Shown in pieces: positions 20,757-45,346 of a DNA stretch of 64,000 bases; positions within the stretch are counted from its first letter, which is position 1; the number at the start of each line of letters is the position of its first letter. The stretch comes from Solimonas sp. SE-A11. GTDB lineage: Bacteria > Pseudomonadota > Gammaproteobacteria > Nevskiales > Nevskiaceae. The translations under genes were made by a program, and so were the position numbers. The notes under the pieces were generated by a model. It did no database searches. It was not told where the DNA came from and worked only from the letters and a program-made list of their open reading frames with translations. The stretch covers positions 62,001 through 126,000 of the forward strand of contig NZ_JAUASX010000009.1 of assembly GCF_030345715.1 (NCBI RefSeq). The letters are read 5' to 3'.

Positions 20757-20908
20757 GGTCTGGGTCAGTCGAGGTGATTCGGTTATAGGACGTCTGGGTA
20801 AAGAACGCAAAATCCTCGTGGTACAGATCCCCTTATACGCCTCCCAAGCGTTGATTGCAAATTGCTTCCGTGATAGCGTTTATGCCATCTTTCTTTGGAG
20901 AAGAGATC

Positions 20909-21151
20909 ATGGCAGCCATGACCATCCGAAATATCCCTGACGACGTGCACCTGGCTATTCAGGCCCGTGCCCGTCGAAACGGACGCAGCGCCGAGGCAGA
21001 GGTGCGCGCCATCCTCGAGGCCGCTGCTGGGCGCCCCATAGCTGGCTTGCGCATGGGTGACGAGCTCGCGGCCCTAGGAAAGGCGCTCGGTGGCATCGAG
21101 CTGGACCTGGAGCGACCGAATAGCCCAATGCTGACGGCGGAGTTCACGTGA
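20909..21151 (+). CDS. fitA: FitA-like ribbon-helix-helix antitoxin
   Basis: An 80-residue antitoxin. The N-terminal block MTIRNIPDDVHLAIQARA, then GRSAEAEVRAIL, is the FitA/VapB-type ribbon-helix-helix DNA-binding domain; the acidic C-terminus would bind and block the PIN toxin. ATG at 20909 is chosen (aagaga upstream); ATG at 20918 is equally compatible with the family. The stop overlaps the GTG start of the toxin gene (GTGA), the normal coupling for such pairs. It likely represses its own promoter in the gap 20757-20908. Confidence 0.85.
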   Translation: MAAMTIRNIPDDVHLAIQARARRNGRSAEAEVRAILEAAAGRPIAGLRMGDELAALGKALGGIELDLERPNSPMLTAEFT

Positions 21152-21864
21152 TCGTGCTCGACACCCATGTGATCGCCGAGCCGTTGCGGGCTCGTCCATC
21201 CGCCGCAGTGCTGGCATGGCTCAACGCGCAGGCGCCGGATTCCCTGTTCACCACGACGCTGAACCTGGCCGAGTTGTACGCCGGCATCGCCGTCCTTCGT
21301 TCCGGCAAGCGTCCCAGCGAACTGCAGGGCGCGGTGCGGGCGACTATCGGGCGCCTGTTCGGTGGCAGGGTATTGGAGTTCGACGTGGCCGCAGCTGAGA
21401 GCTACGCGGTGATCGCCGAGCGCGCTCGGTCCAGTGGCCAGGCCGTACCTCACGACGATGCGCTCATCGCGTCGATAGCCATGGCGCACGGATTTGCAGT
21501 GGCTTCCCGCAATGCCGGCCATTTCGACGGCGCCGGCATCATGGTCATCAACCCTTGGGGATCCGAGGAAGATGGAGGTGATCGGATGAACGAGCTAAGA
21601 ATCCGTGAGATCGTTGCCAACGAGATCGGCGAGTCCTACGTGCTCGTCATCGCTTCTGGAATCGCCAGGTACCTTTCTGATACAGATCGGTGGTCTGCGG
21701 CCAATGAGCGCGATGTCGCAGCCCTGAGCGTAAAGGCACGGCGCTTGTTCGATGCCCACGAGGAGATTTTCCTCGGCCGCACCCGCATGCCCATCGGCGC
21801 GCGCCGGGAGATCGTCAGCAGGTTCCTCCGTGGAGAGGACGTGAGGCCTCTTCTCGTCCCGTGA
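21148..21864 (+). CDS. fitB: FitB/VapC-like PIN-domain toxin with C-terminal extension
   Basis: A 238-residue protein whose first 140 residues form a complete PIN ribonuclease: Asp5 in MIVLDT, Glu42 in NLAELYAG, and Asp103/Asp104 in PHDDALIA supply the acidic site. FitB toxins normally stop at about 140 residues. Here the frame runs on for about 92 residues (from MNELRIREIV at 147) with no recognised domain. Just before Met147 lies an ideal ribosome-binding site (GGAGGTG at 21574-21580, ATG at 21586). A separate downstream protein may therefore be made from the same frame, or a stop codon may have been lost and two genes fused. The GTG start overlaps the antitoxin gene. Confidence 0.85.
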   Translation: MIVLDTHVIAEPLRARPSAAVLAWLNAQAPDSLFTTTLNLAELYAGIAVLRSGKRPSELQGAVRATIGRLFGGRVLEFDVAAAESYAVIAERARSSGQAVPHDDALIASIAMAHGFAVASRNAGHFDGAGIMVINPWGSEEDGGDRMNELRIREIVANEIGESYVLVIASGIARYLSDTDRWSAANERDVAALSVKARRLFDAHEEIFLGRTRMPIGARREIVSRFLRGEDVRPLLVP

Positions 21865-22320: not shown

Positions 22321-22746
22321 CTATTTCTTCACCTTGCGCAGCGCTTCCTTCACTCGGGGCAGCGTCGCGACATGCAGCGAGCCCAACTTGGGATTTCGGC
22401 CGAACCTCGGCTTTGGCGGCGTGGTGAACCAATCCGACGTGTAGTCCAGCGTAGCAATGCGCCCGAGGTCGAACTTCGTGTCGTAACTCAGCCCCATGCT
22501 GTCGTACTCGTCAGGATGTTCCTGCTTCGCCACCAGGAACTCGCTCGGGAATAGCTTTCCGATCTGGCTGGTACCCTGGCAGACGTCCACTTGGTAGGCG
22601 GCGCCGGCGCCTGCGGGCTCGCGAACGCGAAGCACGATCGCTGGCCGTGGCTTCGGCGGCTTCGCCGGTCGGACAAGGTCGTGCGGGAACCAGCACCACA
22701 CGACATCCCCGATCCGGGGAGCAGGGAGGGCGACCGGATTAGCCAT
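22321..22746 (-). CDS. Putative MazF/PemK-family toxin
   Basis: A 141-residue protein starting with the layout of the PemK/MazF fold: a strand GDVVWCWFP, a loop, then KPRPAIVLRV, and later VCQGTSQIGKLFPSEFLV and LSYDTKFDLGRIATL, which resemble PemK-like toxins that cut mRNA. Divergence from classical MazF is large, and a non-toxic SH3-like role is possible. The gene lies 20 bases downstream of a small basic-start protein on the same strand, the usual arrangement for an antitoxin-toxin pair. Confidence in the family is moderate. Confidence 0.6.
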   Translation of the reverse strand: MANPVALPAPRIGDVVWCWFPHDLVRPAKPPKPRPAIVLRVREPAGAGAAYQVDVCQGTSQIGKLFPSEFLVAKQEHPDEYDSMGLSYDTKFDLGRIATLDYTSDWFTTPPKPRFGRNPKLGSLHVATLPRVKEALRKVKK

Positions 22747-23145: not shown

Positions 23146-23456
23146 AGAATCTAGCCGCGCGCAGGCCCGAGTGCGGGGGCATATAGCGAGCGCATCCCTC
23201 AAGGGACGGATGCAATATAGCAAAAAGTTAGCACTGCTGCTAGCTCTGTGCTAGCACACTATGTCCTCTGGATTCGGTTGCGGAGCCGGGATCGCGTCCC
23301 CGGGGAGCGGCTCCGCAGGGGGCGCAAGGGCTCGACGGCGCACCGGCCTATCTGCAAAGCCCGGTGCGAGATTTCCTCTCATTTCTGCCGTAAAATCAAA
23401 GCCAAAGTCGCTAGGGGCGCTTGAATTTATCGGCAGTAGTCTCGATAATGTTCCCC

Positions 23457-23520
23457 GCACCGACGCTTACGGCTATGCCGATGTCGGTGCGATCTGCCCC
23501 CTTTCGGGGGCTTATTTGTT
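23457..23520 (+). promoter_or_regulatory. Structured leader with terminator-like hairpin ahead of the NYN gene
   Basis: Two hairpins in tandem: gcaccgac (23457-23464) pairs with gtcggtgc (23483-23490) and holds an inner cggc/gccg stem; then gccccc (23496-23501) pairs with gggggc (23506-23511), followed by ttatttgttt. The second looks like a Rho-independent terminator just 26 bases before the NYN start. An attenuator or a small RNA that ends here would both fit; phage-type antisense RNAs have similar ends, but no Rfam family is claimed. Confidence 0.6.
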
Positions 23521-23536
23521 TCTGGGGCAGGGAAAC

Positions 23537-24400
23537 ATGGACCGGTTCGCCATTTTTGTCGATGTCGGCTATCTCATGCGCCAGGCGCTGAGAATCGTCA
23601 GCGGGAAGGACAACGCCACTCGAAGCGAGTTGCGCATTATCGACCCCGCCAAGCTCATCGACACCCTGAGCCAGCAGGCGAGGAATGCATTTCGGCACGA
23701 CCGGCAGCTTCGCACTTACTGGTACGACGGCGTCGGCACGACCATGACACCGGAGCAGACCAGCATCGCGATCCTGCCGGATGTGCAGTTCCGCGCCGGG
23801 ACGATTCACAACAAGAAGCAGAAGGGGGTCGACTCCAGGATCGTTCACGACCTGTTTGAGCTCGCCTCCAATCGCGCCATCGCGGACGCCCTGGTAGTGA
23901 CGGGTGACGGCGATCTCGCCGTGGGCATTGAGTTCGCGCAGCGGCGCGGCCTTCGTGTGGCGCTTCTCAGCATCGAGGATGTCCCGAACGGGGTGAGTGC
24001 CAATCGCCATCCGGAACTCAGCTATCTTGCGGATCGCCAGCTGACCTTGGGCAAGGGCGATATCGACAAGCTGTTCAAGTATGAGCCGGCGGCCAAGGTG
24101 GTCGCGGCCAAGCCGATTCCGCCGCAGGCCCAGGCGGTGCCGGCACCAGTGGTCCAGGTTGTCGCGCCGCAGGCTCCTGCGTCCATAGATGACCAGCTGC
24201 GCGCTGCCGTGAAGCAGTTAATCGCTGATCTCCCGGAAGACACCCGGGCGAAAAGCCTTAACGCTGCCGGCGGCATCGTCGCCGAGATCGACCGCCAGTT
24301 GCTGGCTAAGGCGAAGGCGGCTTTGGGCCGCATGCTCGAAACTCCGGAGCGCAACAAGCTTCGCTCGCTCTATAGCGAGCAGATCAACCAACAAAGTTAG
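23537..24400 (+). CDS. NYN-domain (PIN-like) protein
   Basis: A 287-residue protein. The N-terminal 175 residues are a NYN/LabA-type PIN-like domain: FVDVGYL supplies the first Asp, VDSRIVHDL the middle acidic site, and VVTGDGDL the DxD pair; such domains are predicted metal-dependent RNases. A Pro/Ala/Val linker (about 185-210) leads to a helical C-terminus of about 75 residues, perhaps for interaction. ATG at 23537, with gcaggga upstream, is preferred; the frame is open back to 23261, but that stretch contains the hairpins and resembles no domain. The stop overlaps, tail to tail, with the predicted nuclease gene. Confidence 0.8.
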   Translation: MDRFAIFVDVGYLMRQALRIVSGKDNATRSELRIIDPAKLIDTLSQQARNAFRHDRQLRTYWYDGVGTTMTPEQTSIAILPDVQFRAGTIHNKKQKGVDSRIVHDLFELASNRAIADALVVTGDGDLAVGIEFAQRRGLRVALLSIEDVPNGVSANRHPELSYLADRQLTLGKGDIDKLFKYEPAAKVVAAKPIPPQAQAVPAPVVQVVAPQAPASIDDQLRAAVKQLIADLPEDTRAKSLNAAGGIVAEIDRQLLAKAKAALGRMLETPERNKLRSLYSEQINQQS

Positions 24401-26046
24401 AGCTGGCCGCCAGCGGCGGAACTGCCGTCGAATTTTTGCAGCGCTGCCGTGAGACATTCTTCACACGCGCGTAGAGCATCATCGACGATTTGGGACCGCC
24501 CATATTGAATCTTTTGGTCTGCTAGATGCTGATGCATGTAGAGACGGCTAGTGTCCGCGGCACTGTCCGCGAGAATGCAATGGCGAAGAAACGTCGGAAG
24601 ATATAGCTTTCCTGCGCGCGCCGCATCGATTAGTCGCTCAAAATCTGGTATTGACAACGTGTACATGTGAGCAAGTGGCAATCGCTCCAGGGCGATTGGG
24701 TCTGATGGCGCAAGTGTTCCCTCGGGATACATTGATGCCAGCATTGTGCCGCGGCCGGCACTGAGTTCTTTATTGGTAACAATCAGGAGGTAGTCTGTCT
24801 CAGCATTCGCGATCTGCTGCGGTGCTGCATTTGCGTTTCTAACCTCCTTCGACGCGGCCCATGCTTGCGAGGCGGCCTTTTGGAGCGCGCGAGTCTTCCT
24901 CCGAAACATTTCGCCATGACCAACGGCCATAACAGATTCGTCAAATATTCCCGCCTTCGATTCGACCCAGATGTTGCACTCGGGATATGAAAGCAGGCCG
25001 TCCGGCACTTCAGAGTTGCGCCCTATCCAGCGCTGGATTTCGCCCTCTGGGTAGAAGGCGTCTCTCAAAGAGCAGGCTTCGGTTGTGACATGGTGCTCGA
25101 AAACCTTGCTGAAGCTGTCGATGTATTCCTGGCCTGCTTCGGCTAGGACATTGTGAACCAATCCTTCCAGGCCACGGCAGAAGACCGCCGGATGCCAGCA
25201 GTGCAGAATTTCTCCCGCTGCCAGCAGCGGAAATCGGCTCAGCACTGGAAACTCGAACATTTCCGATTGCTTCTTCTCCCTGGCGTCCGGTAGCCCTCTA
25301 ACAAATGCGCACAGTTCGGGGACCGTGCGGGCAATCAGGCGCAGAAAGGACTGCACCGTGCCCGGAGGTAGGGCGCTTTCGATCGGCTCGAATGCAGCGG
25401 GCCGAAACGAGAGAACTCCAGAGTTGATCATTGCGAATGCAGCGTATTGCATCGCCATGAATTCACTCGGCTCGATTCCCGTCTTTTGTCTCCAGAGCTT
25501 TCTAAGGCGATGCTCAACTGGCAACCTACCTAAAAGTGCCGCCTCACGTACAAACCCAGGGTCCATCAATGTCTGGAAGCCTGCCTGGGGTCGGAGCAGT
25601 TGGCGAATGAAAAGATAGGGTGATCGATCATCTCCAATTTTCGATTCAATCCGGTCAGGCAACTGCCACAGCATCTGGCGGATTTGACCGAATTGCTGCC
25701 GTGAGATTCGAGGTAGCGTTTCGCTTCTGTCCAACGCAGCGTCCTGAAGGGCCCACTTCACCAGCAAAAGTGTCTGGCCGGGGGCGCTCTGCATCTCCTC
25801 AAGGCGGTCCTTGTAGGGTCCGCGCAACGTAGTCAACGCAGCGTCGAGTATCGAATCGCGGTTGAACTTGCGAAGTTTGTTCCTGATGCCGAAATAGGCT
25901 TCTGCGAAAGTTAGTCGCGGCACTGCACTATCCTCAATGCACTTGTCCGCATACTCCAGGCCCCGATAGTCATTCTGAAGGTGGCGGCAGCCCCTGGTCT
26001 CGCCGACATGCTGCTGCCAAGAAGAATGGTCGGCTCCGGCATTCAA
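24397..26046 (-). CDS. Predicted PD-(D/E)XK nuclease of unknown family
   Basis: A 549-residue protein. Residues about 330-420 show the elements of a restriction-like fold: a helix ending KVFEHHV, then VPDG (the PD motif), a strand with WVESKAG (the ExK motif), and a following helix with ALQKAASQAW carrying a possible Q motif. The first 320 residues are mainly helical without a known domain. The only start compatible with the reading frame near the previous gene is TTG at 26046, which overlaps the recombinase stop (TTGA), so the two are translationally coupled. A role in defence or element maintenance is inference; no homologue was recognised. Confidence 0.65.
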   Translation of the reverse strand: MNAGADHSSWQQHVGETRGCRHLQNDYRGLEYADKCIEDSAVPRLTFAEAYFGIRNKLRKFNRDSILDAALTTLRGPYKDRLEEMQSAPGQTLLLVKWALQDAALDRSETLPRISRQQFGQIRQMLWQLPDRIESKIGDDRSPYLFIRQLLRPQAGFQTLMDPGFVREAALLGRLPVEHRLRKLWRQKTGIEPSEFMAMQYAAFAMINSGVLSFRPAAFEPIESALPPGTVQSFLRLIARTVPELCAFVRGLPDAREKKQSEMFEFPVLSRFPLLAAGEILHCWHPAVFCRGLEGLVHNVLAEAGQEYIDSFSKVFEHHVTTEACSLRDAFYPEGEIQRWIGRNSEVPDGLLSYPECNIWVESKAGIFDESVMAVGHGEMFRRKTRALQKAASQAWAASKEVRNANAAPQQIANAETDYLLIVTNKELSAGRGTMLASMYPEGTLAPSDPIALERLPLAHMYTLSIPDFERLIDAARAGKLYLPTFLRHCILADSAADTSRLYMHQHLADQKIQYGRSQIVDDALRACEECLTAALQKFDGSSAAGGQL

Positions 26047-27095
26047 GATCCCTGGTCGAGTTCATCGGACATTGTCGCGGACTGCAGGCCGGCTTGCTGG
26101 GCCTGTCGAGTCGCTAGGAGCCGAGCCATGCCGCCGCGCTCGGCCTCCAGGTCCTCGGCATAGCGCACCGGCATGCGTGCGGTCTTCCAACGGCCCTGCC
26201 GCATCACCTCCGGCAGGCCCACGTCGGCCGCCAGCAGATCCTGGGCGGCGCCGACGCGCGTGCTATGCCCCGAGATCCTCGGCAGCACGACGCCGGCGGC
26301 CGCCGCGCGCCGCAGCAGGATCCTCGGGATGTCCCGGGCCGATAGCGGCCGGGCGTAGCGGTCCGCCTGGTTCGACCGCGGCGTCGACCGGAACAGCGGC
26401 CCCTCGGTGATCCCTGCCAGGCGCAGCCAGTGCTGCAGCCGCAGCACCGTCGCCGGCGACAGGTACTGCACCGCGCCTTCGCCCTCCGGGTCGGTCTTGC
26501 TTCGCGCGATCAGCAGCCGGCCGGAGCCGTTGGGCTTCACTTCGAGCTGGTCGACCTGCAGGGCCACGAGCTCGGAGATTCGGCACATCGACTCAAACGC
26601 CACGCCCATCAGGGCGGCATCCCGTGCGTCCTGCGGCCGCCCTGGGGCCAGCGGCGCCTGCAGGCGCTCGATTAGATCCAGCGTGAGGCCGCTGGCCTGC
26701 GCCTGGCGCTTCGGGAGGCTCCTGCGCTTGCCGCGCCACATCAGGCGGCCTTCCAGCGTGTCCAGGGCCCAGGGAAGGCCCGCCAGGCGGTGTACGAGGG
26801 CCAGGGTAGCCAGGTTGTGGTCCAGCGTGGCCCGCGAGCGCTTTTGCGCGATGCGTGCGTCCAGGAAGGCGCGCAGGGCCGGCAGATCGGCGGGCAGCGT
26901 CGGGAAGCCCTGTTCCTGGCAGAACGCTGTCCAGATCCGCCAGTCCGCCCGCCAGCTGCGCAGCGTGTTCGGCGCGTAGGCCAGCTGCACGTCGGTGGCC
27001 AGCGCCTGCAGGCGGTCGACTAGGTGCTCTGGAGCAGTGTGGGCGAGCTCGGCGAGGGCATCGAGGCCGGCGCCGACCGGGGTAGGGGAGTTCAT
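26043..27095 (-). CDS. Cre-like tyrosine recombinase
   Basis: A 350-residue recombinase that resembles phage P1 Cre more than XerC/D. The catalytic residues fall at nearly the same positions: Arg172 (CRISELVAL), Lys200, His277 and Arg280 (ISGHSTRVGAA), Trp303 (GRWKT) and Tyr312 (VRYAED). As in Cre, a Trp replaces the usual second His; the 3-, 23- and 9-residue spacings are identical. The end, ERGGMARLL, also recalls Cre. Cre resolves dimers through lox sites, so this protein may resolve multimers of the excised element or act on cassettes. It is divergent from kfrA and coupled to the nuclease gene downstream. Confidence 0.88.
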   Translation of the reverse strand: MNSPTPVGAGLDALAELAHTAPEHLVDRLQALATDVQLAYAPNTLRSWRADWRIWTAFCQEQGFPTLPADLPALRAFLDARIAQKRSRATLDHNLATLALVHRLAGLPWALDTLEGRLMWRGKRRSLPKRQAQASGLTLDLIERLQAPLAPGRPQDARDAALMGVAFESMCRISELVALQVDQLEVKPNGSGRLLIARSKTDPEGEGAVQYLSPATVLRLQHWLRLAGITEGPLFRSTPRSNQADRYARPLSARDIPRILLRRAAAAGVVLPRISGHSTRVGAAQDLLAADVGLPEVMRQGRWKTARMPVRYAEDLEAERGGMARLLATRQAQQAGLQSATMSDELDQGS

Positions 27096-27250
27096 GGGGA
27101 AACAGCCTACCGCACCGGGCTTGTGTCAGACCACAGTCATTATCAGACACTTCATAACATATCGTATATATGAAATATGATATGAAAAATAGTTTCTATA
27201 CGATACGAAATAAGCTATGTTTAAGCCTCAAGTCACCCAGGAGATTCGTC
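27096..27250. promoter_or_regulatory. AT-rich divergent promoter region with inverted repeats
   Basis: The gap between the recombinase and kfrA is strikingly AT-rich compared with both genes. Two 13-base arms (27155-27167 and 27175-27187) match as inverted repeats at 10 of 13 positions around a 7-base spacer, close to a lox layout. Separately tatcgtata (27160-27168) is repeated inverted at 27197-27205. These are candidates for KfrA operators, for a recombinase site, or both. An aggag ribosome-binding site precedes kfrA. Confidence 0.6.
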
Positions 27251-28156
27251 ATGGCCCGTCCCGGCATTACCTTCGAGGAAGTCGCCCGGGCTGCCGATGC
27301 ACTGGTCGCCGCCGGCCGGGTTGGCCGCGACGGCACCCCTACGCTCGACGCCATGCGGATGCAGTTGGGCGGCACGGGCTCGCCGAACACCATCCATGCG
27401 CATCTGCGTACCTGGAAGGCGAAGCGCCCGGCGCCAGCGCCGGTGGTCGGTGAGATCCCGGCCGGCATCGTCCGCGCGATCAACGACGAGATTGGCCGCG
27501 CAACGGCCGCGGTTCGTGACGAGCTGGGAGCCCGCGTCGAGGCAGCGGAGAAGAGTGCTCAGGACTTGGAGCGCGCCGGCGAACAACTCGAAGCCGAACT
27601 TTTGGATCTGCGGGAGCAACTGGGCGCCATGACGGCCGATCGCGACCGTCTTGCGGGCCAGCGGGATCAGCAGGCCTCCGAACTCGTCCAGATCCAGCGG
27701 CAGCTGCAGGCCGAGCGAGATGCCGGCGAAGCGGCGCGCATCGAGCTCGCCCAGATCAAGATCAAGGCCGCGGCCGACGCGGAGCTCCTGCCCTCGATCC
27801 GGGCTGATCGTGATCGCCTGGTCGGCGAGCTTGAGCGGTCACGCCGACAGCACGTCGACGTTGAGCGATCGCTGGCGGCTGCCAACGCGGCGATGGGCAA
27901 GGTCCAGGAGCGCCTAGACGATCTACAGGGCCGCAATGCGGCGCTCGAGAGGGATCGTAGCTCGCTGCAGTCCTCGCTCGATGCTGAGCGCGACCGCAGT
28001 GGCAAGGCCGAGCGGGCGCTCGCCAGCAGCGAGGCGCGCGTGGTGGCCGCTAACGAGCGCGCCCAGGATTTGGAGCGGCGGGAGGCTGACCTTCGTAAGC
28101 AACTGGATGCCAAGACAGCAAAGGCTCAGTCTGGGTTAGAAAAGCGCAAGGACTAG
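27251..28156 (+). CDS. kfrA: KfrA-type DNA-binding coiled-coil protein
   Basis: A 301-residue protein. Residues 1-65 form the KfrA N-terminal DNA-binding domain (ITFEEVARAADALVAAGR, then SPNTIHAHL). The rest is an almost continuous coiled coil rich in Glu, Arg, Gln and Ala from about 75 to 300. On IncP and IncU plasmids KfrA binds its own promoter and supports stable inheritance. Its presence in an integrated element suggests plasmid ancestry or a maintenance step while the element is excised. ATG at 27251 fits the domain; a longer in-frame start is AT-rich and unlike the family. Confidence 0.9.
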   Translation: MARPGITFEEVARAADALVAAGRVGRDGTPTLDAMRMQLGGTGSPNTIHAHLRTWKAKRPAPAPVVGEIPAGIVRAINDEIGRATAAVRDELGARVEAAEKSAQDLERAGEQLEAELLDLREQLGAMTADRDRLAGQRDQQASELVQIQRQLQAERDAGEAARIELAQIKIKAAADAELLPSIRADRDRLVGELERSRRQHVDVERSLAAANAAMGKVQERLDDLQGRNAALERDRSSLQSSLDAERDRSGKAERALASSEARVVAANERAQDLERREADLRKQLDAKTAKAQSGLEKRKD

Positions 28157-29343: not shown

Positions 29344-30486
29344 ATGTACGTCGATCAAAGAAGAAGAGCGTTACTAGCCGGCGCTGGGGCGGCCGTAGCG
29401 GGACTCTTTCCTTGGCCGACATTCGCGAGTGAGACAGGGAGGAGCAGCACGAGCGATCTCCTGCACAGCTGGCCAGATATCCTGGGCGCGTGGAGGTTGG
29501 ACGGGATCGACTACGCGGGAATGTGGAGCCCGGAGCTGGGAGCTCGAGGGATAGCCCTGCCGGGTCGCGCACATGAGCTTATTGAGGACGAGTGGCGCCG
29601 AGGGGAAGCGATTGCCGTGGCACGTAGGCCCGGCGAGTTCATCGTTAGATTTAACCTTGAAGCTCGCAGGGCAGTCCATCTAGTAGAAGCTGAGCAAATG
29701 CGGCGCTTTAATGGCCATGCAGTTTTCTCCCCAGACGGAAAAATCCTGTACACGAGCGAGAACGACCTGGTCAGCGGAAAGGGAGTCATCGGCGTTCGGG
29801 ACGGCGTCACGCTAGAGAAGCGGGCGGAGCTTCCGTCGTATGGGATCGGTCCTCATGGGCTGATTCTGGAGCCGGATGGGGTTCTCCTAATCGCTAATGG
29901 CGGGATTGTCGCAATACCCAAACCCGGGGAAGGCCAGGCGGAGCTCGAACGTATGGCTCCGACTCTGACCCGTCTGAGAATTTCAGATGGTGCTCTTCTC
30001 GATCAATGGATATTGCCAGACCGCTTCTTAAGCATTCGTCACTTGGCAAGAGGGATGGACGGAAGTATCGGGGTAGCGCTCCAGGCCGCACACGCCAACC
30101 AAGCGTCCCGTGAAGAAGCCCCAGTTTTTGCGCTTCTTCGTAATGGGGCCTTCGAGACAATCGATTCGCCCCCCGAAATGCGGCTACAGGGATACGCTGG
30201 TGACGTTGCCCAAGCGCAGGTAGGAAACGCAGTTCACTACGCATTGGGCTGCTCTCATTCTGGCCTGGTAGCTAGGTGGAATAGCACAGGGCAATGGCTG
30301 GGCGCGGCCCCCTTGCCGCGAGCCTGCGCCCTGGCCTCCTATGGTGAATCCTTCCTTGCGGTTACCGAAGAGGGCGAGATGCTCCGGCTTCCCACGAGTG
30401 GCGCTGGGCCTACCTCATTGCCCACCTCCGATGCCAAGTGGGAGAACCATATTTCTTTGATCCATTCGTTATCAGCATCCATTTAA
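29344..30486 (+). CDS. DUF1513 family protein with Tat-type signal
   Basis: A 380-residue protein. The start has a twin-arginine type signal (DQRRRALLAGAGAAVAG). The mature part has blocks typical of DUF1513, a beta-propeller-like family: AVARRPGEFIVRF, FNGHAVFSPDGKILYTSEND, YGIGPHGLILEPDG, ANGGIVAIP, and LSIRHLARGMDGS. DUF1513 genes usually sit with imelysin and di-haem peroxidase genes tied to iron uptake; none are present here, so it is an isolated copy in cargo. ATG at 29344 is preferred because it places the Tat motif at the start. It ends 29 bases before the RHS gene. Confidence 0.8.
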   Translation: MYVDQRRRALLAGAGAAVAGLFPWPTFASETGRSSTSDLLHSWPDILGAWRLDGIDYAGMWSPELGARGIALPGRAHELIEDEWRRGEAIAVARRPGEFIVRFNLEARRAVHLVEAEQMRRFNGHAVFSPDGKILYTSENDLVSGKGVIGVRDGVTLEKRAELPSYGIGPHGLILEPDGVLLIANGGIVAIPKPGEGQAELERMAPTLTRLRISDGALLDQWILPDRFLSIRHLARGMDGSIGVALQAAHANQASREEAPVFALLRNGAFETIDSPPEMRLQGYAGDVAQAQVGNAVHYALGCSHSGLVARWNSTGQWLGAAPLPRACALASYGESFLAVTEEGEMLRLPTSGAGPTSLPTSDAKWENHISLIHSLSASI

Positions 30487-30515
30487 ACGAAATTCTGCAG
30501 TTCTCGGAGACACCC

Positions 30516-33500
30516 ATGCGCTCAAAGAAAACGCTTCTTGCCGCGGCCTGCTTTCTCACCGCTGCTCTTATGTCATCCATGTCCTGGGCCCAGTCTGGCG
30601 ATGAAAGTGGTGACGGTGATCCGGAAGATCCAGTAAGCCTTCCGCCCGTGGTGGTTACTGGCACGTACATTCCTCCCGTATACATTCCGTTTGACTACAT
30701 TCCTGGGCTTGGGCCTGGCGGTGGAGGCGGCAGTGGGCCGTCGTCTCCTACATACGATAGCGTCGAATCTCCTCAACCGCCCAAACCGCCGAAGGACTGC
30801 GAGAAGAGCGCATATCCTGTGGTTTACAAATCGGGATACAAGGTCAAGACAGAGGTAGATTTTGAGGCAGTCTCTCAAGTCCCACTGCGCCTAGAGAGAA
30901 ACTACAGTCAAACCTCGTCTGGGCGAAGAGGACTCTTTGGATTTACTTGGTTTTCTAATTTAGATCAATCGCTAAGGTTTAAGTTTGTCGGCGGTGGAAT
31001 CTGCGACGCTCTGCCAGGTCAAGCTGCGTGTGTCACGCCGGCGACCGCGAGTGCGGACATTGTTTCAGTGGGTCGACTGACATCGGATGGGTCGCAGCTC
31101 CCGTACAACCGGAATGCAACGACTGGCGTTTGGGAAAGCCCATCAAAGAGTGCCGCCGAGACCATATCCCGCAATGCGGATGGCTCCTGGAAAGTGGTGC
31201 ACAAGAGCGGGGAAGTCGAGAACTACAACGCGGGTGGGTTCATTACTTCAACAGTGACCGCCAACGGCGTCACCACGACGTATACCTACTCTTCGAATTA
31301 CTTGCAGAGTGTTAACCATCCTAGCGGGAGAAAAATTAGCCTGGGCTGGAGCGGACTTCGCGTCTCGACAGTGACGGATCCGGCTGGAAACATTTACCGG
31401 TATTCCTATGCTGCGTCCGGCTACCTTTCGCAGGTTCAGCATCCCGGCACCCCTGCGGTGTCTCGAACCTATCACTACGAAAGTACGCCTGGACTACTAA
31501 CAGGAATTTCCGTGAATGGTGTCCGATACAGTTCGTCGGATTACTACGCGGACGGTCGCGTGTTTCACAGTGGCCTTGCGAATGGTGTTGATAGAGACAC
31601 TTTTACTTACGGAACGAACTCCGATGGAACAGCTTACACCCAGGTAACGAATGCGAAGGGCGCCATCACCAAGTTGACCTTCAAGGAAGTTCTTGGCGAA
31701 AAAAGGCTTGTTCGAATGGACCGTTCCGGCGTCGCGAACTGCCCTAACGCCGTGTCGCAAGTGGTTTACGACGCGAATGGATTCAAAGATTATGAGGAGG
31801 ACTTCAACGGAAATCGGACCGATTACACCTATACCGCGAAAGGTCATTTGGAGGATATGACGACCGGAATTAACAGTGCCTTCCCGGGAAAGCAAAGGTT
31901 TACGGATTACATCTGGGACACGGTAAAGAATAGAGTTTCCGGCATTAAGACGTATGGCGCCACTACGGCAGATCCTCTTTCCGAAATTACGTATGAGTAC
32001 TACGGCGCATCCGATCCTTCGCCGAATCAGATCAAAGCCGTGAGCTTCTACAACCGTACGGCGAACGGCACCCCGGGGCAGCTACGGAGAACGACCTACA
32101 CCTATACGGTCCACCCGAGCAAGCTCATTGCTAGTTTGGTGGTCAATGGTCCTCGAACCGATCTCACGGATACGACTACTTACACCTACAACACCTCGGG
32201 CGATTTGACCTCGGTTAAGGATGCCGCAGGTAATCAAGTTTCCTACGCTAGTCAGAATGGACTGGGGCTGCCTGGACAGGAGACCGACGAGAATGGTGTG
32301 GTGACCCAGATTCTCTACGATGCGCGCGGCAGGGAGAAGACTCGTACCCGCGTTCTGACAGGTGGTAATCGTGCGACAAACTTCGAATATCACCCCTTGG
32401 GAGGGATCTCTAAGGTTACTCGTCCAGGCGGCAGTGTGGTCGTGACCACCTACGACAACGCGGGTCGCGTTATTGGCGAGAATATGAATGGGTATCAAGA
32501 GATTCAGTACATGCGTGACGTTCTGGGGAACGTTCACTGGCGGCGGCATATCAACTCCTGCCCGACAACTGGGGTTAATTGCTCCAAGCAGCTCTCGACA
32601 ACATATTCCCATCGTTGGGAGTTCGACGAGCTTGGTCGGCTTACGGCAGACGTCGGTAGTAACCAGCAGAGAACCGAGTACCGTTACGACAACAACGGAA
32701 ATGTCAAGACGGTTCGTGCAGTTGACCTGAAAAACGGAACGTCGGATAGAACAACAACTCTGTCCTACGGACCAAATGACGAACTGCTTAGCTCCACGGA
32801 CCAGCTGAATCAGTCTACGACTTACACCCATGATGGCGCGGGGCGCATCGCGACGGTGACCGATCCGAAGAATCTGGTCACCCGCTATCGATATGACGGC
32901 CTCGGAAATCTTGTCGAAGTCGTTAGCCCGGACGCCGGAATAACGTCGTGGCAGTACGATGAGGCCGGAAATCGAAAGTCGATGACGCGCGCCGATGGCT
33001 CGATGGTTACCTTCGCCTACGATGCGCTCAATCGCCTCACGAGCGCATCGGGTGGCGGAAGGGCGGATACCTATGCATTCGATACCTGCACCAATGGAAA
33101 GGGGCGGCTATGCCGTGCCGCGAATGAGTCGAGCACTGATACATATACCTATACTCAGACCGGGCTCGTTGCGACGCAGACTAGTGTGATCGCCGGGACC
33201 TCCTACGCCATCTCTCGAGCCTACGACAATCTCGACAGGCAGATCACCGTTACCTATCCGGGTGGCACCCAGGTTAAGTTCGAGTACAACGATCAGGATC
33301 AGGTTACGGCTGTAAAGTCCGTAATCGGGTCAACTACGACGACGCTGGCTAGTCAGTTCAGCTACCTAATGTTCGGCCCCGCATCGAAGTACACGCTGGG
33401 CAATGGGACGGTTCGGCAGGTGAGCTATAACCTGGATTATCGCGTTGTCGCGAACAGTCCAAACCTGACCTATTCCTACAACAGTTTTAATGAAGTCTCC

Positions 33501-34721
33501 AGCATTACGGATGGGGCCAACAGCTCGCTGAGCCAAACCTTCGACTATGATGCTCTGGGGCGCCTGAGGACGGTTACGTCGGGGGCGGGTAACCAGGCGT
33601 TCACTTTTGATGCGAACGGGAGCAGAGAAACGCACACTTGGGGCGGCGTGGTCGATGACTATATTCCCCAGGCCACGACCAATCGCATTGCCAGCGTCAC
33701 TGGAACCCGGAGCCGGGCATACACTTTCGATGGGCGAGGTAACACCTATACCGAGAGTGGATGGAGGGGGGGATATACCTACGCTTATGATCCAATCACC
33801 AATAGATTGCAGACGGTAACTAAGGCTTCTGCGGTTACTCAATACTCGGGCAATGCACTGAACCAACGTGTGCGGAAAGCTGGTCCTGGCGGAAATTTCA
33901 ACTTCTTGTTTGATCCATCGGGCAGCTTACTGTCGGAGACGGCTGCAGGTAGCACGGCCATGAGCACGCACTATGTGTGGCTTGGGGGCGAATTACTCGC
34001 CGTCATACGCTCTGGCGTGATTTACTACGTGTTGAATGACCAGCTCGGACGCCCAAGGGAGGTGCAAAACTCGGCGAAGACTGCTGTTTGGCGAGCCAGC
34101 AACTTTGCTTACGATCGTTCGATCACGCTGAACACCTTCGGTGGCCTGAATGTTGGACTTCCCGGACAGTATTTCGATACGGAAAGCGGGTTGTACTACA
34201 ACTGGAATCGACACTACGATGCGAGTACTGGTAGGTATCTGCAAAGTGATCCTATCGGGATATTGGGCGGCTTGAACACTTATACCTATGCAGACGGCAA
34301 TCCTGTCTCGAATATCGATCCGCTCGGGCTTTGGTCCGTCACCGTTGGCGGATACTTCGGCCCTGGGATTGAAATAATGTTCGGAAGCAATTCTGGAAAT
34401 CGGTTCGGCACTGTTAGGGTGGGCTTAGGGTTTGGATTCGGAGCTACGTATGATCCCCGCGGTGGAATTCCCGGTGACGCTCCCGTTGATAGATGTAAGG
34501 GGGGCGTTGTGCTTGCTGATACTGTTTCTCTCGCTGGGAGTATTGGGAATGTGGCTGCTGGGGGCGAGTTTGGTATTTCTCGCAACTACGCGAATGAATC
34601 TTCCGGGTTGGTAGGTGGAGCCATTCTTGGGCCCACATGGGGGGCTCAACTTGTTGGTTCGGTGGGTGCTCAAGCGACCATATATAATCCTGCATATTCA
34701 GACTGCGAGTGCAGACAATGA
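30516..34721 (+). CDS. Secreted RHS/YD-repeat protein
   Basis: A 1401-residue protein with a Sec signal (residues 1-25, ending SMSWAQ), a Pro/Gly-rich segment (about 35-75), a DUF6531-like opening (VDFEAVSQVPLRLERNYS), then about 1100 residues of YD repeats such as YDNNGNVKTV and YDALNRLTSA. The RHS core closes with GRYLQSDPIGILGGLNTYTY and IDPLGL near residue 1270. The last 130 residues are the variable tail, Gly-rich and hydrophobic with a Cys-containing end, and match no toxin known to me. RHS cores form shells that enclose a C-terminal effector. Base composition is much lower in GC than the tra genes, a sign of transfer. ATG at 30516 follows ggag and starts the signal peptide. Confidence 0.92.
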   Translation: MRSKKTLLAAACFLTAALMSSMSWAQSGDESGDGDPEDPVSLPPVVVTGTYIPPVYIPFDYIPGLGPGGGGGSGPSSPTYDSVESPQPPKPPKDCEKSAYPVVYKSGYKVKTEVDFEAVSQVPLRLERNYSQTSSGRRGLFGFTWFSNLDQSLRFKFVGGGICDALPGQAACVTPATASADIVSVGRLTSDGSQLPYNRNATTGVWESPSKSAAETISRNADGSWKVVHKSGEVENYNAGGFITSTVTANGVTTTYTYSSNYLQSVNHPSGRKISLGWSGLRVSTVTDPAGNIYRYSYAASGYLSQVQHPGTPAVSRTYHYESTPGLLTGISVNGVRYSSSDYYADGRVFHSGLANGVDRDTFTYGTNSDGTAYTQVTNAKGAITKLTFKEVLGEKRLVRMDRSGVANCPNAVSQVVYDANGFKDYEEDFNGNRTDYTYTAKGHLEDMTTGINSAFPGKQRFTDYIWDTVKNRVSGIKTYGATTADPLSEITYEYYGASDPSPNQIKAVSFYNRTANGTPGQLRRTTYTYTVHPSKLIASLVVNGPRTDLTDTTTYTYNTSGDLTSVKDAAGNQVSYASQNGLGLPGQETDENGVVTQILYDARGREKTRTRVLTGGNRATNFEYHPLGGISKVTRPGGSVVVTTYDNAGRVIGENMNGYQEIQYMRDVLGNVHWRRHINSCPTTGVNCSKQLSTTYSHRWEFDELGRLTADVGSNQQRTEYRYDNNGNVKTVRAVDLKNGTSDRTTTLSYGPNDELLSSTDQLNQSTTYTHDGAGRIATVTDPKNLVTRYRYDGLGNLVEVVSPDAGITSWQYDEAGNRKSMTRADGSMVTFAYDALNRLTSASGGGRADTYAFDTCTNGKGRLCRAANESSTDTYTYTQTGLVATQTSVIAGTSYAISRAYDNLDRQITVTYPGGTQVKFEYNDQDQVTAVKSVIGSTTTTLASQFSYLMFGPASKYTLGNGTVRQVSYNLDYRVVANSPNLTYSYNSFNEVSSITDGANSSLSQTFDYDALGRLRTVTSGAGNQAFTFDANGSRETHTWGGVVDDYIPQATTNRIASVTGTRSRAYTFDGRGNTYTESGWRGGYTYAYDPITNRLQTVTKASAVTQYSGNALNQRVRKAGPGGNFNFLFDPSGSLLSETAAGSTAMSTHYVWLGGELLAVIRSGVIYYVLNDQLGRPREVQNSAKTAVWRASNFAYDRSITLNTFGGLNVGLPGQYFDTESGLYYNWNRHYDASTGRYLQSDPIGILGGLNTYTYADGNPVSNIDPLGLWSVTVGGYFGPGIEIMFGSNSGNRFGTVRVGLGFGFGATYDPRGGIPGDAPVDRCKGGVVLADTVSLAGSIGNVAAGGEFGISRNYANESSGLVGGAILGPTWGAQLVGSVGAQATIYNPAYSDCECRQ

Positions 34722-43765: not shown

Positions 43766-44038
43766 AACGCCTCCACAAAGAAGTAATACGCATCGGACTG
43801 ATGCGCCACTCAGTGTGGACCTACTCGCGGCAGCAAGATGCCCCCACTTTGATAGTCCCGTAAATAACCTGGGAGATAATTTGAACCTGATTCACTCGTC
43901 AGGTTGGGTGCCCGCGATCCACTCCGATAGCCCTGACGGCTGAGTCGAGATCTCGGCGATGTAGGCGAATGCCGACAAAGATATGCGTCAGGAGTATTGT
44001 GCCGCCCCCCAAACAAAAGAAGCTTGGAGGGTGTCACG

Positions 44039-45019
44039 ATGGAAACGCAGTACCGAAAGGTGATGACGCTGGAGCAGCTGGCGGACCGCTACGTCCGCTA
44101 TCGGCGTCCGAGCCCAGAAATGCAGTACCAGGTGCGGCTGGTAGTACGACTTCTCCGGCGCGACGTGAAAGTCACGGGCCTGGACGACCTGAATCCGGAC
44201 GTGCTGCTGGATTGGCGCGACAAGGTATTGGATCGAGCATCGATCTCGACCTGGAACAACTACCGCAGGCATCTGAGGGTGCTCTTGAACCATGGCTTGG
44301 CCAAGGGCGATATCGAGGTGGATCCCCTGGCGGACGTCACCAGCGTGCCTGTAGCTCAGCAGCGCAAGAAAACCGTGGAAACTGGAGATCTTGAACAGGC
44401 ATTTGCTTTTCTGGACCGTCCTAGCGTAATTGCCCTCCCCTGGTTCTGGAAAACGGTACTGTCGGTGTTCTACACGACCGCGCTGCGCCGAAAGCAGGCA
44501 ATCGGGCTGCGCTGGAGCGACTTCAGGGTCGATACGCGCTCAATGCCGCTGCAGGGGACGCTGCGGCTGCGTGCGGAGACGAGCAAGACGCGCCGGGAAT
44601 GGGAGGTGCCCCTGGAACCCGAGGTCGTGCAGTTGCTGTTGGTCCTGCGCAAGAAAACGGGGGAAGCGGCTGGGACCTCCTATCTGGAAGGGGGGCAGAT
44701 ATTCAACTGCAACCTGTTTATCCGCGGTGCCGAGAAGCGGGACATGAGCCGGTGGCAGCTTGATCGGTTCTTCAAACTGCTGACCAAGAACGTCGGGGTC
44801 AGGGTCTCCGCCCACCGGATGCGCCATACCTTTGCCACTCAGGTCGCGGAAAGCGCGCCTACTAATATCAAGGTCTTACAGCAGTTTTTGGGTCATACCG
44901 ACATACGGACCACGCTGGCATATGTACACCCGGATATTTCTCAAATGAGGACGCTGCTCACGGGGCTTCACGTCCCAACTCCTATGCTCCGGCTCAGCCC
45001 AACCTTGCTCAGCCGCTAG
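44039..45019 (+). CDS. int: XerC/D-type integrase of the ICE
   Basis: A 326-residue tyrosine recombinase. The core-binding domain covers about residues 8-105 and the catalytic domain the rest, with Arg150 (TTALRRKQAIGL), Lys183, His259 and Arg262 (AHRMRHTFATQ), His286 (LGHTDI) and Tyr295 (LAYVHPD). All catalytic residues are present. The gene points toward tRNA-Thr 252 bases away, the usual arrangement for an ICE integrase beside its attachment site, so it probably inserts and excises the element. ATG at 44039 follows ggaggg. It is much closer to Xer proteins than the Cre-like enzyme at 26043 is. Confidence 0.92.
   Translation: METQYRKVMTLEQLADRYVRYRRPSPEMQYQVRLVVRLLRRDVKVTGLDDLNPDVLLDWRDKVLDRASISTWNNYRRHLRVLLNHGLAKGDIEVDPLADVTSVPVAQQRKKTVETGDLEQAFAFLDRPSVIALPWFWKTVLSVFYTTALRRKQAIGLRWSDFRVDTRSMPLQGTLRLRAETSKTRREWEVPLEPEVVQLLLVLRKKTGEAAGTSYLEGGQIFNCNLFIRGAEKRDMSRWQLDRFFKLLTKNVGVRVSAHRMRHTFATQVAESAPTNIKVLQQFLGHTDIRTTLAYVHPDISQMRTLLTGLHVPTPMLRLSPTLLSR

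Positions 45020-45270: not shown

Positions 45271-45346
<76 letters not shown>

What the first reader, a model, noticed from the sequence alone, without database searches (positions are those of the whole stretch)
24397..27095. Cre-like recombinase translationally coupled to a predicted PD-(D/E)XK nuclease
The recombinase stop and the nuclease TTG start overlap, so the two are made together. The recombinase keeps the Cre-specific Trp and all Cre spacings. The partner shows a PD...ExK site and a possible Q motif but no known family. A recombinase-nuclease pair could be a defence, exclusion or element-maintenance system that I do not recognise.
Basis: partly seen in the sequence, partly recalled or inferred. 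Interest (0 to 1): 0.65.

Follow-up and report, generated by a model that had tools for sequence, protein, structure and literature searches.

The report
GapS1 anti-phage nuclease behind Cre-like recombinase
A mobile DNA element in a bacterium carries a gene of an already named anti-phage family (GapS1, a predicted DNA-cutting enzyme) directly behind a Cre-like recombinase gene; the two look like separate modules that happen to sit together, so the pair is mostly ordinary cargo on a mobile element.

Summary
Both genes are real. The 549-aa ORF is not family-less: it passes NCBI's curated cut-off for GapS1, a named anti-phage family (335.8 bits, cut-off 320). Its D349, K364 and Q394 lie at conserved columns of 20 aligned relatives, and a predicted model matches restriction-type nucleases and, nearly end to end, the defence protein Upx. 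The 'overlapping TTG start' exists as letters, but a GTG start 123 nt downstream with a better ribosome site fits the family better. The recombinase is Cre-like with its catalytic residues. Its usual companions are a divergent KfrA_N protein and a lox-like site between them, as in TnpS/TnpT modules; the site occurs once in the genome. Everything lies in a ~77-kb conjugative element in tRNA-Thr that has its own, different integrase. None of 12 other recombinase loci has a GapS1 gene, but gapS1 follows unrelated integrases in P2-like prophages and one further locus. Best reading: element-maintenance recombinase plus a separate GapS1 cargo gene; co-regulation remains open.

The parts
24397..25923 (-). 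gapS1, likely true extent (GTG start, 508 aa): GapS1-family PD-(D/E)XK nuclease; residue numbers in this report are those of the 549-aa ORF
   Evidence: NF047931 335.8 bits, cut-off 320; GAGGA 7 nt before the GTG, profile begins 12 residues after it; model pLDDT under 50 for residues 1-43
24955..25005 (-). predicted catalytic stretch P348-D349 to E362-x-K364
   Evidence: D349 and K364 invariant in 20 aligned sequences; positions
26043..27095 (-). Cre-like tyrosine recombinase, 350 aa; catalytic residues R172, K200, H277, R280, W303, Y312
   Evidence: Phage_integrase 2.3e-13; best solved relative Cre, 2.4e-26; residues aligned with Cre
27122..27151 (+). lox-like site TGTGTCAGACC-ACAGTCAT-TATCAGACACT (11-8-11), 26 bp upstream of the recombinase start codon
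   Evidence: found by a matrix built without the window, 24.9 bits against 11.4 for the next other place in 64 kb; one match in 4.94 Mb at up to 3 mismatches. In the window itself the arms pair at only 7 of 11
27251..28156 (+). KfrA_N coiled-coil DNA-binding protein (TnpT-like), divergent from the recombinase; likely start ATG 27251 (the ORF opens at 27170)
   Evidence: KfrA_N 5.9e-17; from 27251 its N-terminus aligns with that of the pWW0 protein
43997..45019 (+). the element's own tyrosine integrase, next to attR (context)
   Evidence: Phage_integrase 6.7e-22
45271..45320 (.). attR: 50 bp of the tRNA-Thr(CGT) end, repeated at C41:30184-30233 (attL), giving an element of about 77 kb

Best explanation
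Two modules lie side by side in the cargo region of a ~77-kb F-type integrative conjugative element. Module 1 is a Cre/lox-like maintenance system: the recombinase acts on the 30-bp site 26 bp in front of its own gene, with the divergent KfrA_N protein as DNA-binding helper or repressor, and most likely resolves dimers or tandem copies of the element into monomers (a single site, next to the gene; integration is served by another integrase). Module 2 is gapS1, a one-gene anti-phage defence: a helical N-terminal part that senses an infection signal and a C-terminal PD-(D/E)XK domain that cuts nucleic acid. gapS1 was acquired behind the recombinase gene and is probably co-transcribed with it, from its own ribosome site. 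Shown: gene families, catalytic residues, the site and its co-occurrence with the recombinase, element borders. Inferred: nuclease activity, phage protection and sensing, resolution, operon.
For: GapS1: NF047931 over the cut-off, profile positions 1-455; the Klebsiella phage protein that the Phold paper calls GAPS1-like (passages) is found by the window protein and passes the same model; 13 of 16 E. coli matches to that phage gene bear the gene name gapS1 in RefSeq. Nuclease: conserved D349, K364, E317, Q394; model pLDDT 73.8, pTM 0.76; Upx Z 11.4 over 365 residues, N.BspD6I Z 10-10.4. Recombinase module: KfrA_N partner diverges in 4 of 9 full relatives and in the window, as in the pWW0 pair; a site beside the gene in 5 of 9 full relatives, with perfect 11-8-11 palindromes in L055, L056, L057 (0 of 2000 shuffles each), 10 of 11 in L016 (2 of 2000), 9 of 11 in L053 (49 of 2000); site pattern (up to 1 mismatch) in 8 of 8 family genomes with a recombinase at least 50% identical, 4 of 50 others (Fisher 2.6e-7; without the 4 genomes the pattern came from 4 of 4 against 4 of 50, 2.2e-4). 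Separate origin: GC3 0.60 in gapS1, 0.88 in the recombinase. Element: conjugation genes, TraI_2 relaxase, coupling protein, integrase, 50-bp repeats at tRNA-Thr.
Against: No activity was measured here. The GapS1 score is only 16 bits over the cut-off and identity to the 19 aligned relatives is 14-23%. In the window the site's arms pair at 7 of 11, and the plain palindrome test on its 200 bp is not significant (best 8 of 11; 388 of 2000 shuffles). Four of 9 full relatives (L050, L051, L052, L054) have no such site beside the gene, and five (these and L057) no KfrA_N gene in the stretch held; in G007, G013, G019 and G020 the site lies elsewhere in the genome, which pure self-resolution does not explain. 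Of the four genomes not used for the pattern only G007 has an exact match; G013, G019 and G020 have one mismatch, as do the four genomes without the recombinase. gapS1 directly behind a recombinase in other lineages is less well explained by chance cargo. Foldseek finds only one PDB match under E 0.001, and Z under 8 may mean only a common arrangement (note).
Confidence: 0.74

Rival explanations
1. A functional recombinase-nuclease unit: GapS1 is tied to the recombinase operon so that it is made when the recombinase is made (element entry, excision or replication), serving exclusion of rival elements or phages; the KfrA_N protein and the lox-like site would be the shared switch.
For: gapS1 lies directly behind a tyrosine recombinase on the same strand in the window, in 20 of 25 P2-like loci and in L063 (30 bp gap); TTGA overlap in the window; 4-nt overlap of the annotated integrase and gapS1-like genes in Klebsiella phage phi4.1.
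Against: The P2-like loci share one integrase lineage (91.7-99.7% identical to that of phi4.1 in L090-L110) and 21 of 25 came from one P2-like query, so they are not independent; in L104, L105, L106 and L110 about 1.1 kb lies between integrase and gapS1 and in L108 gapS1 is broken; 22 of 23 other GapS1 loci lack a recombinase directly in front (3 with under 1 kb of upstream sequence); the likelier start codon is not the overlapping one.
Confidence: 0.13
2. A TnpS/TnpT-type cointegrate resolution module left by a Tn4651-like transposon, with gapS1 as transposon cargo.
For: Divergent tyrosine recombinase and KfrA_N gene with a site between.
Against: The three called window ORFs over 900 aa are TraG, an RHS protein and GlnD, so no intact Tn3-type transposase is seen; recombinase 28% identical to the pWW0 TnpS-position protein, which fell with the Xer-like row outside the Cre-like rows in both trees, on long branches and with weak support.
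Confidence: 0.07
3. The nuclease is part of the recombination pathway (for example end processing) rather than defence.
For: Gene neighbourhood only.
Against: 12 other recombinase loci lack it and most GapS1 loci outside P2-like prophages lack a recombinase in front; the family is named for anti-phage activity.
Confidence: 0.04

Closest known systems
GapS1 / GAPS1 (Mahata et al. 2024, Nat Microbiol 9:3268, doi 10.1038/s41564-024-01840-5; paper not held, seen only as a citation in PMC12774648)
   Same: Full-length profile match over the curated cut-off; conserved D, K and Q positions; relatives often on mobile elements.
   Different: Low identity to relatives (14-23%); sits behind a Cre-like recombinase in an F-type ICE; no activity tested.
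P2-like prophages of Klebsiella and E. coli with integrase-gapS1 order (e.g. NC_049448 gp48-gp49)
   Same: gapS1 directly downstream of a tyrosine recombinase, same strand.
   Different: The integrase is a phage Int beside a CI-type repressor gene, not a Cre-like enzyme with KfrA_N; GapS1 18-20% identical to the window's.
Upx (PDB 9wuf)
   Same: Predicted fold matches over model residues 46-517, Z 11.4, 365 aligned, rmsd 5.2.
   Different: Upx chain has 1212 residues; 10% identity; no sequence-level match of the GapS1 profile to any PDB chain.
P1 Cre/lox and D6 Dre/rox
   Same: Same catalytic residues; site close upstream of the gene (rox lies 152 bp before dre); 27-29% identity.
   Different: Half-sites of 11 rather than 13 bp with unlike sequence (lox arm length recalled); KfrA_N partner.
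TnpS/TnpT-rst of Tn4651 (pWW0) and TnXax1
   Same: Divergent tyrosine recombinase and KfrA_N protein with a site between (PMC7157771 passages).
   Different: 28% identity to the pWW0 recombinase; no Tn3 transposase seen in the window; upstream of the pWW0 recombinase no 11-8-11 palindrome beyond chance (7 of 11, 1619 of 2000 shuffles).

Membership tests
GapS1 family (NF047931) | score over the curated cut-off across the whole profile | tested here: met
   335.8 bits, cut-off 320, profile 1-455
GapS1 family (NF047931) | PD-(D/E)XK residues conserved (that this defines the family is recalled) | tested here: met
   D349, K364 in 20 of 20; Q394 at least 90%
GapS1 family (NF047931) | protects against phage | not testable with these tools
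   needs an experiment
PD-(D/E)XK nuclease superfamily | restriction-endonuclease-like core fold | tested here: met
   N.BspD6I Z 10-10.4, R.BspD6I2 9.5, FokI 8.3 at rmsd 11.7; further nucleases at Z 5-7.6 may be only a common arrangement; Foldseek support weak except Upx
PD-(D/E)XK nuclease superfamily | metal-dependent cleavage | not testable with these tools
   -
Gamma-Mobile-Trio element | GmtX, GmtY, GmtZ trio (recalled) | tested here: inconclusive
   no NCBIfam model named for GMT hit the 19 window proteins scanned; I did not check that the library holds such models
Cre-like recombinases | catalytic R, E, K, H, R, W, Y | tested here: met
   all seven positions; Cre best solved match
Cre-like recombinases | acts on a lox-type site without helper | not testable with these tools
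   candidate site only
TnpS/TnpT-rst resolution module | divergent tyrosine recombinase and KfrA_N helper | tested here: met
TnpS/TnpT-rst resolution module | part of a Tn3-family transposon with TnpA | tested here: not met
   none of the called window ORFs over 900 aa is a Tn3 transposase; the element's left ~32 kb, outside the window, was not annotated
Integrative conjugative element | flanking att repeats at a tRNA, integrase, relaxase, coupling protein, T4SS | tested here: met
   only TraC and TraU exceed their NCBIfam cut-offs, the other Tra matches lie below

The most novel reading that the evidence does not exclude
GapS1 is repeatedly placed behind tyrosine recombinases of unrelated mobile elements because its expression is tied to the recombinase operon: the element arms the nuclease only around integration, excision or transfer, and here the lox-like site plus KfrA_N would be the switch, making a recombinase-gated defence.
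Probability: 0.12. Interest if true: 0.65.

Novelty: new member of a known kind. Interest (0 to 1): 0.33.

Why it matters
It turns an apparently unknown recombinase-nuclease pair into a divergent GapS1 defence gene on a conjugative element, shows that gapS1 sits behind tyrosine recombinases in at least three unrelated contexts, suggests that GapS1 and Upx share a fold, and gives a testable lox-like site with its Cre-like enzyme and KfrA_N partner. If gapS1 expression proves to follow the recombinase, it would be a case of element-gated defence.

Tried and rejected
Led nowhere: Pfam and PADLOC (2023) for the nuclease; PADLOC for four relatives. The search for related loci with the window GapS1 in genome contigs and viral contigs and with the window recombinase in viral contigs found no relative. 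A profile of 20 GapS1 sequences found no PDB chain by sequence at E up to 1. BFVD gave no match under E 0.001. Recombinase trees placed the window protein without strong support. Considered and rejected: TnpS/TnpT transposon (no TnpA seen), recombinase as the element's integrase (another integrase lies at the tRNA-Thr border), partner nuclease acting in recombination.

Corrections of my own work: one search used a pattern one base too long between the arms, so its hits are meaningless; repeated correctly. In one search the row L050 was out of frame (put right); the statements on residues do not use it. The first test for gapS1 beside other recombinases (blastp with the window protein) could miss distant relatives, so it was repeated with a 20-sequence profile (the profile contains L063 and L080, which it found). 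Rows left out: L079 and L081 gave no usable GapS1 ORF; the weak match L015 was not followed. Looked at only in part: 2 of 16 E. coli records, 3 of 17 phage records with their surroundings, 3 of the 4 new plasmid-collection records.
Full report
What is in the sequence. Two open frames lie head to tail on the minus strand: the recombinase at 26043-27095 (350 aa) and a 549-aa frame at 24397-26046. The junction reads TTGA, so the recombinase TGA overlaps a TTG. The TTG is probably not the start: the family profile begins only at residue 54, whereas ten relatives begin 15-35 residues before it (some of those starts are simply the first possible ones); residues 1-43 of the model have pLDDT under 50; and the in-frame GTG at 25923 has GAGGA 7 nt upstream while the TTG has AGGG only 3 nt upstream. 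With the GTG the window protein begins 12 residues before the profile. GC3 does not separate the two (0.66 in codons 1-41, 0.60 after). So 'made together by coupling' is unproven; co-transcription is likely but untested.

The nuclease. Pfam and PADLOC give nothing, but NCBIfam gives NF047931 antiphage_GapS1, 335.8 bits against a curated cut-off of 320, over the whole profile. The name goes back to the GAPS1 system of Mahata et al. 2024; that paper is not held and I saw only citations of it and the GAPS1 passages of the Phold paper PMC12774648. The GAPS1-like protein of Klebsiella phage ST437-OXA245phi4.1 named there is hit by the window protein at 19.6% identity, and passes the same model. Matches to the model at E up to 0.001 are rare: 2 of 58 genomes of the family, 6 of 369 of the class, 11 of 398 of the phylum, the window's own genome counted each time; over the cut-off 2, 2 and 4.

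Catalytic site and fold. An AlphaFold2 model from the window protein and 16 relatives has mean pLDDT 73.8 and pTM 0.76. Foldseek finds one PDB match under E 0.001, Upx (7.1e-4). VIA-align, a second look at Foldseek's list, puts Upx first (Z 11.4, 365 residues, model 46-517), then the nickase N.BspD6I (Z 10-10.4), its partner subunit (9.5), FokI (8.3, but rmsd 11.7), and below Z 8 McrBC chain M, HindIII, Can2 and Shedu/SduA chains among rows of other kinds. That Upx counts as an immune system is taken from passages of PMC12629846; that it is a PD-(D/E)XK protein is recalled. The restriction-like fold is thus supported; cleavage is inferred.

The recombinase. Its closest solved relatives are Cre structures (2.4e-26); identity is 28% to Cre and 29% to Dre. 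R, E, K, H, R, W and Y of Cre are all kept; the Trp is also in Dre and in the TnpS-position protein of pWW0, so it is not Cre-specific. Its best relatives in the family are 50-59% identical.

Its partners. Divergent from it lies a KfrA_N protein (5.9e-17), whose start is probably 27251 by alignment with the pWW0 protein. The pWW0 pair stands in the place of TnpT and TnpS of Tn4651 (names from PMC7157771 passages, and recalled position; the record does not use them) and is also a divergent KfrA_N protein and tyrosine recombinase. Among nine full relatives, KfrA_N faces the recombinase in four (L016, L053, L055, L056), an MbnP gene in three (L051, L052, L054); in L050 and L057 the divergent ORF scanned was an alcohol dehydrogenase and a hemerythrin, and a KfrA_N profile found nothing in those five. 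In none of 12 other recombinase loci (these nine, the contig-edge L058, and the plasmids L018 and L019) does a GapS1 profile find anything.

A lox-like site. In front of the recombinase in L055, L056 and L057 lies a perfect 11-8-11 palindrome (0 of 2000 shuffles each), 10 of 11 in L016 (2 of 2000), 9 of 11 in L053 (49 of 2000); L051, L052, L054 and pWW0 show none beyond chance, and no site is seen beside the gene in L050. The window has the corresponding sequence at 27122-27151; its arms pair at only 7 of 11 and the plain palindrome test fails there (388 of 2000), but a matrix built without the window puts this place far above all others in 64 kb (24.9 bits; 15.8 is the same place reversed; 11.4 next). 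A pattern of the site matches once in the 4.94-Mb genome at up to 3 mismatches. Across 58 genomes of the family a pattern with up to 1 mismatch is present in 8 of 8 with a recombinase at least 50% identical and in 4 of 50 others; Fisher 2.6e-7, or 2.2e-4 when the four genomes from which the pattern was taken are left out. Of the remaining four, only G007 matches exactly; the hits of G013, G019, G020 and of the four genomes without the recombinase have one mismatch. L056 and L057, whose recombinases are only about 38% identical, have a different arm sequence, found once each in their genomes. This co-variation is what a recombinase and its target would show. Against a simple self-resolution role: in G007, G013, G019 and G020 the site is not beside the recombinase but elsewhere, in G013 and G019 between a chorismate synthase gene and an EAL/GGDEF gene (Pfam run on the G019 copies only).

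The element. Upstream genes match F-type conjugation proteins (TraB, TraC, TraU, TraN, TraF, TraH, TraG; only TraC and TraU above their cut-offs), downstream lie a TraI_2 relaxase, a coupling protein and a second tyrosine integrase. The integrase borders tRNA-Thr(CGT) at 45271-45346, and 50 bp of that tRNA end are repeated at C41:30184-30233, so the element runs about 77 kb. The Cre-like recombinase is therefore probably not the integration enzyme. Around the pair lie a FitA-like antitoxin with a PIN toxin (20855-21864), a PemK-like toxin and an NYN protein: a cargo and maintenance region. gapS1 has GC3 0.60 against 0.88 in the recombinase, and the last 25 recombinase codons already have 0.60, which fits later arrival of gapS1 with part of the junction.

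Is the pair a system? Of 25 P2-like loci (L064, L082-L084, L090-L110) 20 have gapS1 directly behind the integrase (-19 to 12 nt by first-start ORFs), four have about 1.1 kb between, and in one (L108) gapS1 is broken. These share one integrase lineage and 21 came from a query made of such proteins, so they count as about one event. Of 23 other GapS1 loci one, L063, a distant relative (51 bits, below the cut-off), has a Phage_integrase protein 30 bp in front; three of the rest have under 1 kb of upstream sequence. L080, also distant, has a recombinase 202 bp behind it. So gapS1 is a mobile single gene that has landed behind integrases more than once, and the window is one more case. Whether that is only a safe insertion slot or a regulatory link is the open question.

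Verdict. A divergent new member of the GapS1 family on a conjugative element, next to a Cre/lox-like maintenance module: mostly ordinary, with two leads (integrase-gapS1 order, and the lox-like site with its counterparts elsewhere in relatives). Paper searches on KfrA, tyrosine recombinases and dimer resolution (12 of 626 listings seen, 5 of 5) showed nothing on this combination in titles and abstract openings; a search for GapS1 with integrase (12 of 1,977 seen) gave only the Phold paper for GapS1. The library lacks most subscription journals, so I make no claim that it is unpublished.

Noticed in passing
L136-L139, L144, L145 (genomes G007, G013, G019, G020): The recombinase's lox-like site occurs away from the recombinase gene, in G013 and G019 between a chorismate synthase gene and an EAL/GGDEF gene; could be a chromosomal target or a dif-like site.
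   Followed up: partly
window 20855-21864: FitA-like ribbon-helix-helix antitoxin and PIN toxin pair downstream of TraG; a PemK-like toxin lies at 22321-22746.
   Followed up: partly
window 23261-24400: NYN-domain protein converging on gapS1, overlapping its end by 4 bp.
   Followed up: no
window 30438-34721: 1427-aa RHS-repeat protein inside the conjugative element.
   Followed up: no
window 45271-45346 and C41:30184-30233: att repeats of a ~77-kb F-type element in tRNA-Thr(CGT); another tyrosine recombinase lies just outside the left border (C41:28885-29379).
   Followed up: partly
L090-L110: In P2-like loci the integrase is 91.7-99.7% identical to that of phi4.1 while the full-length gapS1 ORFs behind it are 48.6-100% identical to the phi4.1 copy, as in a cargo slot.
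   Followed up: partly
L055:10402-11466: A second ORF matching the KfrA_N profile about 1 kb behind the first one in G053.
   Followed up: no
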